NCBI GenBank assembly: GCA_000697475.1
Contig: JNEU01000777.1
Location: 62,001-126,000 of the forward strand
DNA from: Lichtheimia corymbifera B2541
Taxonomy: Eukaryota > Mucoromycota > Mucoromycetes > Mucorales > Lichtheimiaceae
Length of the DNA: 64,000 nt
Direction: 5' to 3'
Below, in pieces: positions 8,877 through 58,634 of this stretch; position 1 is the first letter of the stretch, and each line of letters begins with the position of its first letter. The position numbers and the translations under genes were made by a program. Under the pieces are notes generated by a model. It ran no database searches, was not told where the DNA came from, and was given only the letters and a program-made list of their open reading frames with translations.

Positions 8877-11520
8877 CTGCAAAGCAAGTAGCTGCAAGTA
8901 GCTTGAGACAATGGGATAAAGACCTTGCTAATAGCACAGCTGCAACGTTTGGTTGATGCGCAAGGAGTGTATGTTGTAGTAGAGTGATAAGGTTATGAAC
9001 GCTGTTTGAGACAATGGAATAAAGACCTTGCTAATAGTAACTGCTGGAATGAATGCTGTTACGATTGGTTGTGGCGGATGAGAGTACAAGAGAAGGTGGA
9101 GTGTCAAGACACGCGGGTACTGTAGTGGGGTGCACACGTCATGGAGTTGCCATTCAGTCAAAGACAATTGGATCAATACAGTTGTAGGATTGACATGATG
9201 GGCTGAAGCAGGACAATCGTTCGCAGCTGGTAGTTGTAGTTGAATGGGGTAACAGTTGAGAATGGGAGGAAGAGGCAAAGAAGGAGTGAGTGGAAGAGGT
9301 GGAAATTAAATCGGTCAGGCACTGTCAGACATATCTATGCACACTGTAAACTGATACATGATCTTGGTATTGCTCACTTGAACTCCAAACTTTCACACAA
9401 GATGCTCTTGGGCATGCTGATCAACTTTGTATTAATAAAGAAGTCATGCTTCATTTGAAGATTTTGAATGGGGAGGTATAATGTGGGGTTTACTATGGAT
9501 GGGCGGAAATCGGGTACGCGCCGGATTTATGATTTATCGAAATAGTATGTATTAACTTGGGATTCCCCATCTCGAACCTGAAACTTTGTCAGAAGGTTCG
9601 CTGGGACATGCTGATCAACTCCATTCATTTAAAAATCGCAGGCTTCATTATAAATGTTTCGAATGCGGGGCGCCCCAAATTTAGGCAACAGTAGGGTCCA
9701 CGCTCCCTGAGCCTGAGATTGCCCACCTCGAGCCTGAAACTTTCATGCAAGGACCCTTTCGACCACGCTGAGCAATTCCGTTCTCATAAAGATGTCACGC
9801 TCCATTATGAAGTTTTGGATGGCAGCGTCCAACTGTATGGACGGAAACCTAGATAAGATGTAAGGGCCGCGCCCGCCGATATCTGTGATCTCGAACATGA
9901 AACTTGGTCAGAAGGTCCTCTCGGCCATGCTGATCAACTTTGTTCTCATAAAGACGCGACACTTCATTATGACAATTTGAAGAAACAGGCACCTTTATGT
10001 TTTTACATATGCTGTGAGAGTGATGCTATATGGAGAGTGATGTTTGTTCATTGTGAAGTATCATGCAAATGAGCTGAGTTACACAAAGAAGTGCGTCTGC
10101 ATCTTCGGCTCTATCAGGGTCAACCTACTTCACAATGAACAAAGACCACTTGCTATATAGCATTACGCTTACAGCATAGTAAAACATAAAGGTGCCTATA
10201 TCTCTAAACTTTACAATGAAACGTGGGGTCTTCAATCGAACAAAGTTGCGCGGCTGGGTGAAGCGCTCCCTGTGTGCAAGTTTCGCGATCGTCGTGGCCG
10301 ATCTCAGAATCACCCAATGTCACCACCAGCCAAAGTTGAACAGGGTCGACCTCTTGAATTTTTTTTCGACGAGGCTGGTGGTGACATTGGGTGATTTTGA
10401 GATCGGCGAGCTAGATCGCGAAACTTGCACACAGGGAGCGCTTCACCCAGCCGCGCAACTTTGTTCGATTGAAGACCCCACGTTTCATTGTAAAGTTTAG
10501 AGATATAGGCACCTTTATGTTTTACTATGCTGTAAGCGTAATGCTATATAGCAAGTGGTCTTTGTTCATTGTGAAGTAGGTTGACCCTGATAGAGCCGAA
10601 GATGCAGACGCACTTCTTTGTGTAACTCAGCTCATTTGCATGATACTTTACAATGAACAAACATCACTCTCCATATAGCATCACTCTCACAGCATATGTA
10701 AAAACATAAAGGTGCCTGTTTCTTCAAATTGTCATAATGAAGTGTCGCGTCTTTATGAGAACATAAATGAATGAAGTTGATCAGCATGTGCGAGAGTACC
10801 TTCTGACCAAGTTTCAAGTGCGAGATGGGGAATCCCAAGAAACTACATACTAATTGACTTTTTCATAAATCCGGCGCTTTCCATATTTCCGTCCGTCATA
10901 GTAAACCCCACATTATACACTCCCATTCAAAATTTTCAAATGAAGCATGGCTTCTTTATTAATACAAAGTTGATCAGCATGACCAAGAGCATCTTGTGTG
11001 AAAGTTTCAGGTTGGAGAGGGTCAATCAAGGTCATGGATTCATTTATAGTGTGCATGGTTTAGTCTGACAGTGCCTGATCTATTTAATTTCCACCTCTTC
11101 CACTTTGAGCTTCTTCCCTCTTCCTCCTCCCATTCTCAACTGTTGCCCCATTCAACTACAACTATCACCTGCGAACGATTGTTCTGCTTCAACCCATCAT
11201 GTCAATCCCACAGCTGTCTTGATCCGGTTGTCTTGGACTGAATAGCACACTCCATGGCCTGTGCACCCCACTACAACACCCGCGTTTCTTGACACTACAC
11301 CTTCTCTTGTACACTCCTCAAACACGACCAATCGTAACAGCATTCATTCTAGCAATTGCCATTAGCGAGGGCTTCATTTCATTGACTCAAACAGCATTCA
11401 CAGCCTTACCACTCTACTACTACAACACATGCTCTTGTACACGTCTCTGCCACAACCAAACGTAACAGCAGTTGCTATTAGCAAGGTCTTCACAAGCTAC
11501 CTGCAGCAACTTGCTTTGGC
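8877..11520. repeat. Large imperfect inverted repeat (palindrome) around a 41-bp spacer
   Basis: The left arm is about 8877-10331 and the right arm about 10373-11520, with the spacer at 10332-10372. The inner 450-460 bp of each arm (about 9890-10331 against 10373-10840) are nearly identical when one is reversed. Further out the arms are diverged but still clearly alignable, for example the block ending in GTTGTAGTTGAATGGGG at about 9230-9250 against its reverse complement at about 11140-11165. The right arm is about 300 bp shorter because one or two subunits are missing between the CTGATCAACT blocks. Short ORFs in both arms follow the repeat rather than a protein. The structure looks like two copies of a repetitive element joined head to head, or a transposon with very long inverted ends. 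Confidence 0.9.
9383..9985. repeat. Diverged tandem subunits of about 155-195 bp inside the left arm
   Basis: A core of the form TGAAACTT...(A/C)GCTGATCAACT...ATTCATTTAAAAA/TTCTCATAAAG...CTTCATTATGA recurs at about 9390, 9583, 9737 and 9897, spaced 154-193 bp. The same core occurs inverted in the right arm and five times at 62.88-63.70 kb. The subunits are diverged, so the array is not recent. Confidence 0.8.
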
Positions 11521-54127: not shown

Positions 54128-56176
54128 TCAAGAAGAAAAACGCTTGGGTCGTCTGGAGCTGCAGGATTTCCCTGTAATGTATTGTTGGCAGGATGGATGG
54201 CATTGGTATCGACATGCTGAAAGGAATATGCATAACATATATAACATACCATGAGAAAAAGTGGATGTGGATGATATATATCAAAAGTACATTGTGAGTT
54301 GGGGTTTGCCTTTTTGCTCCTCTCTTCCTCTCTCTCTTTCATCTCCTTTTCACAATCCCTCATTTCTCGTATCCCCTCCTCCATCATCACCTCCTCCTCC
54401 ATCCCTTGGTGCATAAAAGAGATATTTACCTCGGCATACCAATGCACGTGGGCCCCATAGTTTGTCCTGACAGTATTCACATTTTCCTGTTGACACTTTA
54501 ACACTTTCAAACTCATGAGCATCATCCTGCTGAGGGTGCGTCATGGCTATTAGCTATCTACGTAATGCATCCCTTTTTCACTTTTAACACTTGCCTTCAA
54601 TGGTAATCGTTTCATCCGAGTTTCCATTTGTTCCATCGCCCGTTCAAGTTCTAAAGTGGCGGATTTCTTGTTTGTTGATTGTTGTTTGTTGGGCTATTGA
54701 GAGAGCGAGAACATGTTAGAATAGGATGATCCACCACAACAAATAGACTGACCTGGTATGAAAATCCAATAAAGGGCAGGTGATTGATATGGTCAATACC
54801 AGTTGCATTCTTCCATATTATGTCATCATGATCATTGTTGTCGTCATCCAATACAGAAAAGTTCGATGTGTCGTCAGGAGAAGCAAGAGTAGGTCGAAAG
54901 GGTGGAGTGCTTTTGCGCAGGTGGTCCCAGTCAATGCCATTGAAGAAGGGATGTGCCTTGATTTCCTCTACATTTTTGGGTCTCGTCTCGCGTTTCGACA
55001 ATAACCTTTCCCGACACACACGTCAATCCACGTCAAGGAATATCATATGACCGATAATAGACATTTTTACCTGAGAATGAGATCACGACATGCAGGGGAC
55101 ACGGGACGTGGAAATTCGATTGATTTGTGAAACATAATGTTGAGGTAGGTGTCTTTTTCACTCTTGTCGCTGTGAAAGGGTGGATTTTGTTGCAAAGCTT
55201 CATATAAAACGATGCCTACTGACCACCAATCGACTTCTGTACCATAAGTTGATGCACATTGTAACACCTCGGGTGACACATAATCGCAAGTGCCGACTGG
55301 TAAGAGCATATCTTTGTTGCTGTTGTTGCTACTGCTGGTGACACTCTTCATTGCAATACAAGATCCAAAGTCAGCGAGTTTGACGTGGCCCGTGCTGTCG
55401 ATCAAGATGTTTTGTGGTTTAATGTCGCGATGAAGGTAACCTAGCTGATGTAGGCTATCCACTGCAAGGATGGTCTCGGCAATATAAAAGCGCGCTTCCT
55501 TTTCACTCAAGCACAATGTCTCTTTACGATCCAGTACGCTAAATAGATCACCGCCACCAGCGTATTCCATGACAAGATATAAATGATCATCGTCTTGAAA
55601 GGCAGCATGTAAACTTGGGATCCATTCAGTATTAGCTTGTGATAATACGGTACGCTCCTCCATAAAAGATGCACGCTATATGACATGCTCGGCTGTTGTG
55701 AGTTGATATGGATGATGATGATGATGAAAAAAAAGCAGTACCTCGCGTTGTGCAAGCATATGGCGTTTGTTTAATATTTTCATGGCGTAAATCTGGTTGT
55801 CGAGTCGACTGCGGACGATCGATACCTTGTGATTTTATATTAGAAACGCGAATATTTTCAGCTTCAATTTCATTACCTGTGCAAATTGACCTCTTGCCAA
55901 GGGACGTATATGTTCAAAATCATCCTTGTTGATTCGTAACCGAGCAATATCATTATAGATGGGTTCAACTTTTGTGTGTTCATTCCATTAGTTTGGTTAC
56001 AGAAAGGAATAAAAAAGGTCCGACAACGTACATTGTTTCAAAAAGGATGGTATTTCTGGAAGAGCTTTTGCGTCTTTGTAGATAGCGACGATACAATCGA
56101 ATAAAGCGTTTGAATGAGAATGAAGGAGTTGATCAAGTTGCTGCTGTGCGGCGGAGGTTTTCGGAGTGGAGAGCAT
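54128..56176 (-). CDS. AGC-family kinase of the DMPK/MRCK/ROCK group with C-terminal C1 domain
   Basis: 488 aa in eight exons: 56176-56032, 55968-55877, 55825-55742, 55675-55071, 55005-54753, 54693-54595, 54529-54430 and 54216-54128, exactly in frame. The N-terminal ~70 residues match the capped-helix region of this group. The kinase has AMKIL (catalytic Lys), HRDIKPQN, DFGSC, GTCDYVSPEVL and the AGC tail ending LPFIGFSY. A C1 zinc module follows (HEFESVKVSTGKCEYC, LWGPRALVC, CRYQCHPSC). The Gly loop reads ARGQFAQV, lacking two of the usual glycines. The long coiled coil, PH and CNH regions of animal MRCK are absent. Intron 6 is GC-AG (GCAAGT). It likely acts in Rho/Cdc42-type polarity or actomyosin control. 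It shares a 316-bp upstream region with the CDK gene. Confidence 0.9.
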
Positions 56177-56492: not shown

Positions 56493-57443
56493 ATGTCAAC
56501 TGGCAACAGTGCAACTCCCGATCAACGATACACACGACTCGAAAAGCTGGGTGAAGGCACCTATGCAACCGTCTACAAGGGGAAAAGTCGTCTCAGTGGT
56601 GAACTTGTTGCGCTCAAAGAAATCCACCTTGACCCAGAAGAAGGCGCTCCATCGACAGCCATTCGAGAGATTTCACTCATGAAAGAACTCAAGCATCCCA
56701 ATATCTTACGACTCCTGGACGTCATTCACACTGAGGGGAAGCTCATTCTCATTTTCGAGTATATGGATCAGGACCTCAAAAAGTACATGGATGCTACAGC
56801 ACGGTCGTCTGGTGGCAGCAACGGCGTTGGCGGTGGACATCAGCATACTACAGCATTGGACCCTGCTGTTATCAAATCATTGATGTATCAGCTATTGAAA
56901 GGAATCGCGTACTGTCATGACAACAGGGTGTTACATCGCGACTTGAAACCGCAGAATCTATTGATGAGCAAACGACTTGATTTGAAGCTGGGCGACTTTG
57001 GATTGGCACGTGCATTTGGTATCCCTGTCAACACCTTTTCAAATGAAGTGGTGACCTTGTGGTATCGAGCACCGGATGTCTTGTTAGGATCACGCATGTA
57101 TTCAACTTCGATTGATATCTGGTCGGCTGGATGTATCATGGCTGAAATGTATACGGGTCGTCCTCTCTTTCCTGGCACTACCAATGAGGATCAACTGCAA
57201 AAGATCTTCCGTATGATGGGAACACCAACAGAACAAACTTGGCCAGGTGTATCTCAATTACCAGAATACAAGCCCAATCAACCTATCTATCCAGCTCAAC
57301 GATTGAACACCATCCTTCCCACTGTCGATGCATGTGCTATTGATCTCCTCACTCGTATGCTGCAATACCAACCCCAACTCAGGATATCCGCCAAAGATGC
57401 TCTTAATCACCCATACTTTAATGAAGTCAGATATATGCAATAG
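56493..57443 (+). CDS. PHO85: Pho85-like cyclin-dependent kinase
   Basis: Intronless, 316 aa. CDK that pairs with Pcl-type cyclins in phosphate signalling, cell cycle and polarity. The Gly loop is [11 protein letters not shown], the catalytic Lys is in VALKEIHL, and the cyclin-binding helix is [17 protein letters not shown] and [20 protein letters not shown] are intact; the T-loop has Ser in the Pho85/CDK5 form rather than the Thr of Cdc28. [20 protein letters not shown] is typical of Pho85. A Gly/Ser-rich insert at about residues 107-122 is unusual. It is divergent from the DMPK-like kinase. Confidence 0.95.
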
Positions 57444-57611: not shown

Positions 57612-58238
57612 TTACTTTTGCAAGCCATCCCAATCCACAAAAAGTTCATCAAAAGTATTGTTGCTTGGTGGACTATTCCCGGTACTGTGTTCGTCATCGG
57701 ATGAAGAAGAAAATGAGAGCATAGGCGAGGGCATTAATTGTTCTTGTGATGTTGGAATAGCCTCCGCTGCAGGGAAAAGGAGATACAACAGACCACATAT
57801 CGCATTCACAGGCCATCGACAGCAAAAAAAATTACTCCACTGGGTGGGGGTTGTGAGCCTTGGATTGGGTTTCTCAATATTACGGTTATGCTGCGGTGGA
57901 TGCTGTTGCTGCGGTTGTTGCTGTATTCCTCTTTGCGATCCGTGCTGAATCGCAAAAGCCATCCAAACCAAAGGGCAATTTGCTCAACGCCATGAGCTGT
58001 GCACTCATCAATTGTAGCTGTGCTTCAAGGAACTGGTTTCGTTGCGACAATTGATCGTTTTCTTCTTTCAGACGCTTGTTGCTTGTCTCGAGGTCGGTTA
58101 CATAGCGACGCTTTCTGTCCCTTGATTCTTGGGCCGCAGCTCGATTACGCAGAATTCTTTCCTTGGTCTTTTGGTCCTTATCGTCAAGCGTAAGCTTCAT
58201 TTTCTTTCGGCTGACGTTGGTAATATCGGTTGATGACA
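57612..58238 (-). CDS. HAC1: HAC1/XBP1-like bZIP factor with probable Ire1-spliced mRNA
   Basis: Master regulator of the unfolded protein response by similarity. From the ATG at 58238 the first frame encodes a basic region (KTKERILRNRAAAQESRDRK) and a leucine zipper (ETSNKRLKEENDQLSQRNQF), then stops at 57886 after 117 aa. A second frame, open from 57971 to 57612, ends in an acidic, Ser-rich tail ending FDELFVDWDGLQK. Removing 57944-57770 (175 nt) joins the two frames: GAT TCA G + CA GCG GAG. The ends of that segment are not GT-AG; they sit in hairpin loops that resemble Ire1 targets. This is the arrangement known for HAC1, HacA and XBP1. The basic region resembles XBP1/Hac1 more than other fungal bZIPs. 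The spliced product is about 150 aa, shorter than HacA. Confidence 0.8.
57770..57944 (-). other. Putative Ire1-type unconventional intron (175 nt)
   Basis: The 5' cleavage loop is CAGCACG (57947-57941) on a 9-bp stem (TTTTGCGAT pairing with ATCGCAAAG). The 3' cleavage loop is CTGCAGC (57772-57766) on a 5-bp stem (TTTCC pairing with GGAGG). Ire1 cuts after the third base of seven-base loops of the form CNG|CNGN. The 3' loop fits exactly; the 5' loop differs at position 6 (C instead of G). Two CCGCAGC sequences at about 57917 and 57896 fit the consensus but show no stem. Using either of those instead also restores the frame. Confidence 0.6.
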
Positions 58239-58634
58239 TAGTTCCCACCCAATGGAGTAAAAATAGTTGAAAAATAAAGAGAAAACCAAAGAATTCCAAG
58301 CAACAAAGCAAAGTGGAATCTTTATGTTCATTGGCAGCCAATCACAATGGAACACGATCCGAGGAAGATGCCGATATTTTTGGAAACCCATGGATGAACT
58401 GGGCGCTGGTATTCATTGTCCCGCGGATTAATACTTCGAGACCACACCCACCCCCCTTCAATATGCCCCACACTCAAACATCACATTTAGACAGCTCCGC
58501 TCACATGAAGACCTTCCGGTATCTCCCGTCATCAACCTCATTCATATAAAAGCCGACAAACTTGATTCCATGCCTCTTTGAACAACCCATAATTTCTCTT
58601 TAAACAAGATTCACCCTTCTCTCTCTATGTCAAT
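58239..58634. promoter_or_regulatory. Divergent region between bZIP gene and 58635 gene, with TATA box
   Basis: 396 bp between divergent genes. CATATAAAAG at about 58543-58552 is a TATA box about 85 bp before the ATG at 58635. A CCACCC-rich patch lies at about 58443-58458. No obvious UPR element (CAGCGTG-like) was found. Confidence 0.5.

What the first reader, a model, noticed from the sequence alone, without database searches (positions are those of the whole stretch)
57612..58238. HAC1/XBP1-like gene with a candidate Ire1-excised 175-nt intron
The bZIP frame stops early at 57886, while an overlapping second frame encodes an acidic tail. Deleting 57944-57770 fuses them in frame. The segment ends sit in seven-base hairpin loops: CTGCAGC at the 3' end matches the CNG|CNGN rule of Ire1, and CAGCACG at the 5' end sits on a strong 9-bp stem but deviates at one position. 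No plausible GT-AG intron reconnects the frames; the only upstream GT is GTTTGG, a poor donor. The non-consensus 5' loop would be a variation of the known rule.
Basis: partly seen in the sequence, partly recalled or inferred. Interest (0 to 1): 0.8.

Follow-up and report, generated by a model that had tools for sequence, protein, structure and literature searches.

The report
Mould stress gene with Ire1-type intron
A Mucorales mould carries the gene for the main endoplasmic-reticulum stress switch (HAC1/XBP1) with an intron that the stress sensor Ire1, not the normal splicing machinery, most likely cuts out; its first cut site breaks a rule known from yeast, and the intron can pair with the mRNA's own leader much as in baker's yeast.

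Summary
The finding holds, with corrections. On the minus strand, ATG 58239 starts a 117-aa bZIP protein (stop 57886); an overlapping frame encodes an acidic tail. Removing 57944-57770 (175 nt) gives a 150-aa fusion. Mucorales orthologues carry the same tail, and two annotated proteins (Mucor lusitanicus, Hesseltinella) have exactly this junction. Ire1 and a Trl1-like ligase are in the genome. The 3' cut CUG|CAGC is canonical but its hairpin is weak; the 5' cut CAG|CACG sits on a strong hairpin but lacks the +3 G that yeast Ire1 needs. That loss is lineage-wide: 68 of 122 proteins examined encode Ser-Ala-Arg there, which excludes the G; outgroups encode Ser-Ala-Ala/Val, which restores it. New here: 17 nt of the leader, ending 4 nt before the ATG, can pair with the middle of the intron (one G.U); their 15-mer core has only these two exact places in 35 Mb, and the intron element seems kept in Rhizopus and Apophysomyces. 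This resembles HAC1 silencing in S. cerevisiae, which one review calls not shared beyond its close relatives. Pseudoknot-free folding does not predict the helix, and there are no RNA data. A new variant of a known kind.

The parts
57945..58239 (-). exon 1: bZIP coding part, ATG 58239 to the 5' cut after CAG (57945)
   Evidence: Pfam bZIP_2 E 5.7e-11
57886..58239 (-). unspliced reading frame, 117 aa + stop (P0002)
   Evidence: unspliced orthologues end in the same FCDSARIAK region
57770..57944 (-). proposed Ire1-excised intron, 175 nt
   Evidence: frame join; exact junction in P0050 and P0057
57931..57957 (-). 5' splice-site hairpin, 10 bp, loop CAG|CACG at 57947-57941, +3 base is C
   Evidence: 29-nt fold -12.9 kcal/mol, z -4.88, 0 of 200 shuffles as good
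57761..57777 (-). 3' splice-site hairpin, 5 bp, loop CUG|CAGC at 57772-57766; weak
   Evidence: -2.1 kcal/mol, z +1.21, 179 of 200 shuffles as good
57612..57769 (-). exon 2: acidic tail AEAIPTSQEQLMPSPMLS...FDELFVDWDGLQK and stop
   Evidence: conserved in orthologues
58244..58260 (-). leader element UUACUCCAUUGGGUGGG, ending 4 nt before the ATG
   Evidence: 17-bp match to the intron; 15-mer core exact at only two genome places
57832..57848 (-). intron element CCCACCCAGUGGAGUAA, complementary to the leader element
   Evidence: core 12-mer compatible with 5 of 9 intron translations of relatives
57952..57963 (-). exon 1 arm of the exon-exon helix
   Evidence: 38-nt joined junction -16.4 kcal/mol, z -3.69, 2 of 200 shuffles as good; pair probabilities 0.55-1.0 in the unspliced RNA for 9 of its pairs
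57755..57767 (-). exon 2 arm of the exon-exon helix
   Evidence: as above

Best explanation
This is the HAC1/XBP1 orthologue of a Mucorales fungus. Without stress the unspliced mRNA encodes a bZIP protein without activation tail, and its translation is probably held down because 17 nt of the leader beside the ATG pair with the middle of the intron. Under ER stress Ire1 cuts after CAG (57945) and after CUG (57770), a Trl1-type ligase joins the exons, which an exon-exon helix may hold together, and the 150-aa activator with acidic tail is made. Shown: the frames, the conserved tail, the matching junction in two annotated orthologues, the genes of the enzymes, the complementarity. Inferred: cleavage at these bases, stress dependence, ligation, silencing. 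The confidence given is for the Ire1 intron at these sites; for the leader-intron silencing it is about 0.5.
For: In-frame join. Tail conserved in eight proteins that carry bZIP and tail, exon 2 entering at the same Glu in the 12-row alignment. P0050 and P0057 read FCDSA-AEV, the predicted join. FPAAE in eight downstream fragments fixes CNG|CNGC at the 3' cut. 5' hairpin z -4.88; inner codon pairs of its stem are all complementary. Ire1 kinase and RNase and Trl1-type ligase. No consensus GT-AG alternative. Leader-intron match: 0 of 4,000 shuffles, two exact genome places, intron core in two other lineages.
Against: No RNA data. The 5' loop has C, not G, at +3, which yeast Ire1 needs (PMC549064, PMC6037481, PMC8104961, passages). 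The 3' hairpin is no better than shuffles and has pair probability at most 0.25 in context. Six of the eight bZIP-plus-tail proteins have other junctions. The leader-intron helix has pair probability 0.0 in ordinary folding, forcing it costs 5.8-12 kcal/mol, cofolding leader and intron gains only -1.4 kcal/mol where 392 of 400 shuffled introns gain as much or more, and 20 of 6,000 random pairs from the window match as well, from three places. No DNA of relatives could be fetched.
Confidence: 0.87

Rival explanations
1. An ordinary spliceosomal intron joins the frames, with the AG of CTGCAG|C (57767) as acceptor and an upstream GT as donor, for example GTTTGG at 57968 (202 nt).
For: 52 GT-AG pairs would join the frames, several with the acceptor at 57767; six annotated bZIP-plus-tail orthologues have junctions other than the Ire1 one, which I read as GT-AG models.
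Against: None of the 11 donors is of a consensus type; one CTNAY-like branch motif only, at 57857. The 202-nt join would remove GFCDSA, which is kept in the orthologues and on both sides of the cut. It explains neither the hairpin nor the FCDSA|AEV junction of P0050 and P0057.
Confidence: 0.06
2. The frames are never joined: the bZIP protein is the only product and the tail frame is not used, or is reached by ribosomal frameshifting in the 98-nt overlap.
For: Most annotated orthologues are the unspliced form; the frames overlap at 57983-57886.
Against: The tail is conserved and starts at the same Glu in relatives, while the intron translation before FPAAE differs between them; frameshifting would keep the intron part, P0050 and P0057 lack it.
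Confidence: 0.04
3. Splicing by Ire1 is right, but the leader-intron match is coincidence, or the leader copy is a CCAAT promoter box read in the other sense.
For: Pair probability 0.0 in ordinary folding, weak cofold, 20 of 6,000 random pairs as good; RNAduplex over the whole leader and intron gives -46.7 against a shuffle mean of -35.5, sd 4.4. The leader's other strand reads CCCAATGG, and CCAAT is a common promoter box (recalled).
Against: Chance or a promoter box predicts neither the intron core in R. arrhizus and Apophysomyces at like spacing nor that the only two exact genome places of the 15-mer lie in one transcript in opposite sense.
Confidence: 0.45

Closest known systems
S. cerevisiae HAC1
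   Same: bZIP frame ended inside an Ire1-removed intron, tail supplied by exon 2, long intron (252 nt there), intron complementary to the 5' leader (PMC6627864, PMC5114014, passages)
   Different: 175-nt intron; 5' loop CAG|CACG lacks the +3 G; the leader element sits 4 nt before the ATG; Ire1 has the S. pombe/human-type interface residues; silencing not shown
Human XBP1
   Same: 3' loop CUG|CAGC is the XBP1 3' loop (hairpin letters in PMC6037481, passage); the cut falls after the first base of an Ala codon in a Ser-Ala context (human ESAALR recalled); removal shifts frame to an activation tail
   Different: 26-nt intron in human (PMC4084626 abstract); human 5' loop CCGCAGC with +3 G (recalled)
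Cryptococcus HXL1 and ascomycete HAC1/hacA
   Same: Ire1-removed intron behind the bZIP region (PMC3154848, PMC6222058, passages)
   Different: introns of 56 nt and 19-29 nt there; no leader complementarity found in HXL1 and said to be absent from shorter introns (PMC3154848, passage)

Membership tests
HAC1/XBP1-type Ire1-spliced bZIP gene | bZIP domain upstream of the intron | tested here: met
   Pfam bZIP_1 and bZIP_2 over cut-off
HAC1/XBP1-type Ire1-spliced bZIP gene | intron removal changes frame to a conserved tail | tested here: met
HAC1/XBP1-type Ire1-spliced bZIP gene | both cuts in 7-nt loops of hairpins | tested here: inconclusive
   5': strong stem, 7-nt or 5-nt loop; 3': weak, no better than shuffles
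HAC1/XBP1-type Ire1-spliced bZIP gene | 3' loop CNG|(C/A)NGN | tested here: met
   CTGCAGC at 57772-57766; motif fixed by FPAAE in eight fragments
Substrate of an S. cerevisiae-type stringent Ire1 | 5' loop CNG|(C/A)NGN, with +3 G | tested here: not met
   CAGCACG; Ser-Ala-Arg in 68 of 122 proteins examined (P0005 added by eye)
HAC1/XBP1-type Ire1-spliced bZIP gene | Ire1 and a joining ligase in the genome | tested here: met
   ligase CPD domain PF08302 not found, but that search was silent in its controls too
HAC1/XBP1-type Ire1-spliced bZIP gene | Ire1- and stress-dependent excision; activation of stress genes | not testable with these tools
   no RNA data
S. cerevisiae HAC1 intron-leader silencing | leader complementary to the intron | tested here: met
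   17 bp, one G.U, 0 of 4,000 shuffles
S. cerevisiae HAC1 intron-leader silencing | helix forms in the mRNA | tested here: inconclusive
   probability 0.0 in pseudoknot-free folding, cofold weak; opening cost 13.3 against duplex -31.4 kcal/mol
S. cerevisiae HAC1 intron-leader silencing | both arms conserved with compensation | tested here: inconclusive
   intron core compatible in 5 of 9 translations; no leader of a distant relative available
S. cerevisiae HAC1 intron-leader silencing | translation blocked until splicing | not testable with these tools
   needs an experiment
Spliceosomal GT-AG intron | consensus donor joining the frames | tested here: not met
   11 GTs, none GTAAGT, GTATGT or GTTAGT; the one conventional intron I modelled in this genome, in Ire1, starts GTTAGT

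The most novel reading that the evidence does not exclude
Intron-leader silencing of HAC1, held to be peculiar to close relatives of baker's yeast, also works in Mucoromycota, here as a pseudoknot crossing the exon-exon helix, so that removing the intron frees the start codon; and in the common ancestor of Mucorales and Umbelopsidales the 5' Ire1 loop lost its +3 G (Ser-Ala-Ala/Val to Ser-Ala-Arg), giving a stem-closable CNG|CN(C/A)G loop that is cut by an Ire1 with the S. pombe/human-type dimer interface.
Probability: 0.45. Interest if true: 0.8.

Novelty: new variant of a known kind. Interest (0 to 1): 0.66.

Why it matters
Most annotated Mucorales HAC1 proteins in these searches are the truncated unspliced form, so the active stress factor is missing from gene sets. 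If the 5' loop is cut, the +3 G rule for Ire1 splicing is not universal, and a whole fungal order shows how it was relaxed. If the leader-intron pairing works, HAC1 silencing is either ancient or arose twice. Both points can be tested with existing genomes and RNA-seq and with simple cleavage and reporter assays.

Tried and rejected
Alternative 5' cuts at CCGCAGC (57914 and 57896; 142 and 124 nt): in frame but with no stem and in a stretch that differs in P0004 and P0005. Rfam at E up to 10: four weak matches, all far below their gathering scores, none to a HAC1/XBP1 family. A tail-only protein search found nothing; the alignment search did (188 proteins, 120 listed). Paralogues in the genome: 12 other bZIP places match the bZIP protein, the best at E 2.8e-8 and 41%; the tail has no other copy at E up to 1. 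PF08302 was not found, but nothing rang in the controls either.

Results that told against me: pair probability 0.0 of the leader-intron helix, cost of forcing it, leader/intron cofold, weak 3' hairpin, random-pair null, outer stem pairs F-N, F-I and F-L that cannot give three pairs, and four of nine intron translations without the element. In one search the printed count 822 used a wrong threshold (-31.3 instead of the observed -46.7) and is not used.

Literature: the ten searches listed no paper whose title or abstract start is about a Mucoromycota HAC1 intron. I opened only some: passages of PMC4891664, PMC6222058, PMC7341893, PMC6037481, PMC549064, PMC8104961, PMC6627864, PMC3154848, PMC6592678, PMC8674358 and PMC5114014; the five papers and the two were seen as listing only, and only 12 of 164 were listed. 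Hooks and Griffiths-Jones 2011, the broad survey of HAC1/XBP1 introns, is not held, so I cannot say whether it covers Mucorales.

Full report
What is there. The window lies in a genome of 35 Mb in 432 contigs. The nearest named homologue is from Dichotomocladium elegans (80%), and the named homologues are Mucorales except Umbelopsis and Basidiobolus (placements recalled), so the source is a Mucorales fungus (inference). On the minus strand ATG 58239 opens a 117-aa bZIP protein (Pfam bZIP) that stops at 57886. A second frame, open from 57983 to 57612, ends in an acidic stretch. Removing 57944-57770 gives a 150-aa fusion.

The tail is a real exon. The first homology search (47 proteins) returned mostly unspliced forms ending in FCDSARIAK and a short variable end, and two with tails, P0021 and P0023, which align with the window's tail. 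The alignment search (188 proteins, 120 listed) brought more. Eight fetched proteins carry both bZIP domain and tail: P0021, P0023, P0050, P0051, P0052, P0057, P0059, P0072. The other six have other joins, which I take for gene-finder models with GT-AG introns (inference). In the 12-row alignment the Glu that opens exon 2 is invariant. Eight further proteins (P0084, P0085, P0088, P0089, P0090, P0104, P0117, P0121) are downstream fragments running through FPAAEV into the tail: Pro-Ala-Ala-Glu fixes CNG|CNGC, so the 3' motif is kept.

The 5' site. TTTTGCGATTCAGCACGGATCGCAAAG encodes FCDSARIAK and folds back on itself: 29 nt, -12.9 kcal/mol, z -4.88, 0 of 200 shuffles. Its arms are codon pairs: Phe-Lys, Cys-Ala, Asp-Ile. 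The six inner pairs I list (D-I, G-I, N-I, D-V in Mucorales and Umbelopsis; E-L and Q-L in outgroups) can all form three base pairs, whereas 6 of the 15 crosses of these residues cannot, and 84 of 400 residue pairs in general can. The middle pairs fit as well, but so do all their crosses, so they tell nothing; of six outer pairs, F-N, F-I and F-L do not fit. This is protein-level evidence only; no relative's DNA could be fetched.

The deviation. S. cerevisiae Ire1 needs CNG|(C/A)NGN (PMC6037481 and PMC8104961, passages), and each shared element of the motif, the G at loop position 6 among them, was called essential for efficient cleavage (PMC549064, passages). Here that base (+3) is C. Of 122 proteins examined by script (the window's own two frames included) 67 match Ser-Ala-Arg at this site and P0005, which my pattern missed, makes 68; the named ones are Mucorales and Umbelopsis. 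Arg codons (CGN, AGR) never put G at +3. Unspliced Ser-Ala-Ala is seen in 4 (P0061 and P0063, Endogonales; P0097 and P0101, unnamed), Ser-Ala-Val in 4 (P0075, P0077, P0091, Basidiobolus; P0093, unnamed, Mortierella-like by my reading); P0050 and P0057 are spliced forms. The remaining 44 have no such motif: tail fragments, truncated proteins, intron-retaining models, distant bZIPs. In the shifted frame of Apophysomyces P0059, RFSTDR puts ACN over the same bases, which fixes the C (my reading). Arg also fixes G at +4, which can pair with the loop's first C and leave 5 nt. So the loss of the +3 G belongs to Mucorales and Umbelopsis and is not a quirk of this genome. The human XBP1 site has the same codon phase, with ESAALR (recalled).

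The enzymes. The Ire1 RNase domain lies at C169:47388-47837, with a kinase domain upstream. In an alignment to yeast Ire1 (2rio) the residues opposite the Glu and Lys of LEFLLK, which I take as 988 and 992, are Ala and Asp; at the Tyr1059 position (yeast letter recalled) it has Lys, as human IRE1 does. PMC8104961 (passages) describes variable/acidic/basic at these three positions as the S. pombe-like pattern, found in 175 of 230 orthologues, human included, and ties it to looser RNA choice. That fits a non-consensus site but does not prove it; the loosened yeast mutant in that paper still preferred CNG|NNGN on HAC1-derived loops, which is against a simple explanation by these residues alone. 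A Trl1-type ligase lies at C357:30976-31713.

The leader-intron match. Leader 58260-58244 and intron 57848-57832 form 17 contiguous pairs with one G.U. None of 2,000 intron shuffles and none of 2,000 leader shuffles reaches the score. The 15-mer CCCACCCARTGGAGT has two exact places in the genome, these two, in opposite sense; 61 further places have one or two mismatches, about as many as the backward control pattern. Random leader/intron-like pairs drawn from the window reach the score in 20 of 6,000 draws apart from the gene itself, all from three places: a long inverted repeat at 10 kb, a TG repeat at 50.6 kb, and 63219. Back-translation shows the 12-mer CCACCCARTGGA possible in the intron translations of P0085, P0088, P0089, P0090 (R. 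arrhizus type, counted as one lineage, read in three frames) and P0059 (Apophysomyces), its end 57-65 nt before the end of the Pro codon at the 3' cut; the window's is 65 by the same measure. It is not possible in P0084, P0104, P0117 or P0121; P0104 and P0121 are too short for it but start with ATGGA at 58 and 61 nt. Controls: 0 of 1,219 other segments, 4 of 2,700 shuffled intron translations. The variable base is A or G, opposite U in the window's leader.

Folding. Ordinary folding gives this helix probability 0.0; forcing it costs 5.8-12 kcal/mol, and cofolding leader with intron gains only -1.4 kcal/mol, where 392 of 400 shuffled introns gain as much or more. One reason is topological: the helix crosses the predicted exon 1-exon 2 helix, and such programs cannot hold both. 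In the predicted fold the intron element sits in a 4-bp hairpin in otherwise largely open sequence; opening both elements costs 13.3 against a duplex of -31.4 kcal/mol. Without a pseudoknot penalty that favours pairing; I treat it as open. In yeast the corresponding helix was called only marginally stable (PMC5114014, passage).

Known and new. [quoted passage not shown] PMC3154848 (passages) found none in Cryptococcus HXL1 and says shorter introns lack it. The gene, the enzymes and the principle are known. The lineage-wide 5' loop and the leader-intron match in this group did not turn up in my searches, with the caveat that many listed papers were not opened and the main survey is not held.

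Verdict. An Ire1-type HAC1 intron at the stated cuts, 0.87; leader-intron silencing, about 0.5. Ordinary in kind, unusual in two testable details.

Noticed in passing
window 9934-10770: A long near-perfect inverted repeat: arms of 398 nt, 97% complementary, 41 nt apart. Nature unknown.
   Followed up: partly
window 56496-57443 (+): A cyclin-dependent kinase frame with PSTAIRE, Pho85-like by my reading, converging on the HAC1 3' end about 170 nt away.
   Followed up: no
window 55067-55990 (-): Frames of another protein kinase with KLADFGSC, ROCK/DMPK-like by my reading.
   Followed up: no
P0080, P0082, P0083, P0086, P0096: Mortierella-like proteins (by my reading) read GFCQV at the place of the 5' Ire1 site while P0093 reads GFCQSAVLAKK, as if a conventional intron sat just before the site there.
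   Followed up: no
P0075, P0077, P0091 (Basidiobolus): Behind the ESAVLTK site these proteins carry a hydrophobic stretch (such as NISLVLWILIWIFSFGL), which recalls the membrane-targeting part of unspliced human XBP1 (recalled).
   Followed up: no
P0061 and P0063 (Endogonales): A stretch FFSMISW/FFSMIFLTG read in another frame could encode LLDDLLDW, so the acidic tail may lie in a second frame there as well (my reading).
   Followed up: no
P0074 (Umbelopsis type): The leader read in frame as LGGGIKFIM could be TTGGGTGGGGG, like the window's leader element; a hint only.
   Followed up: no
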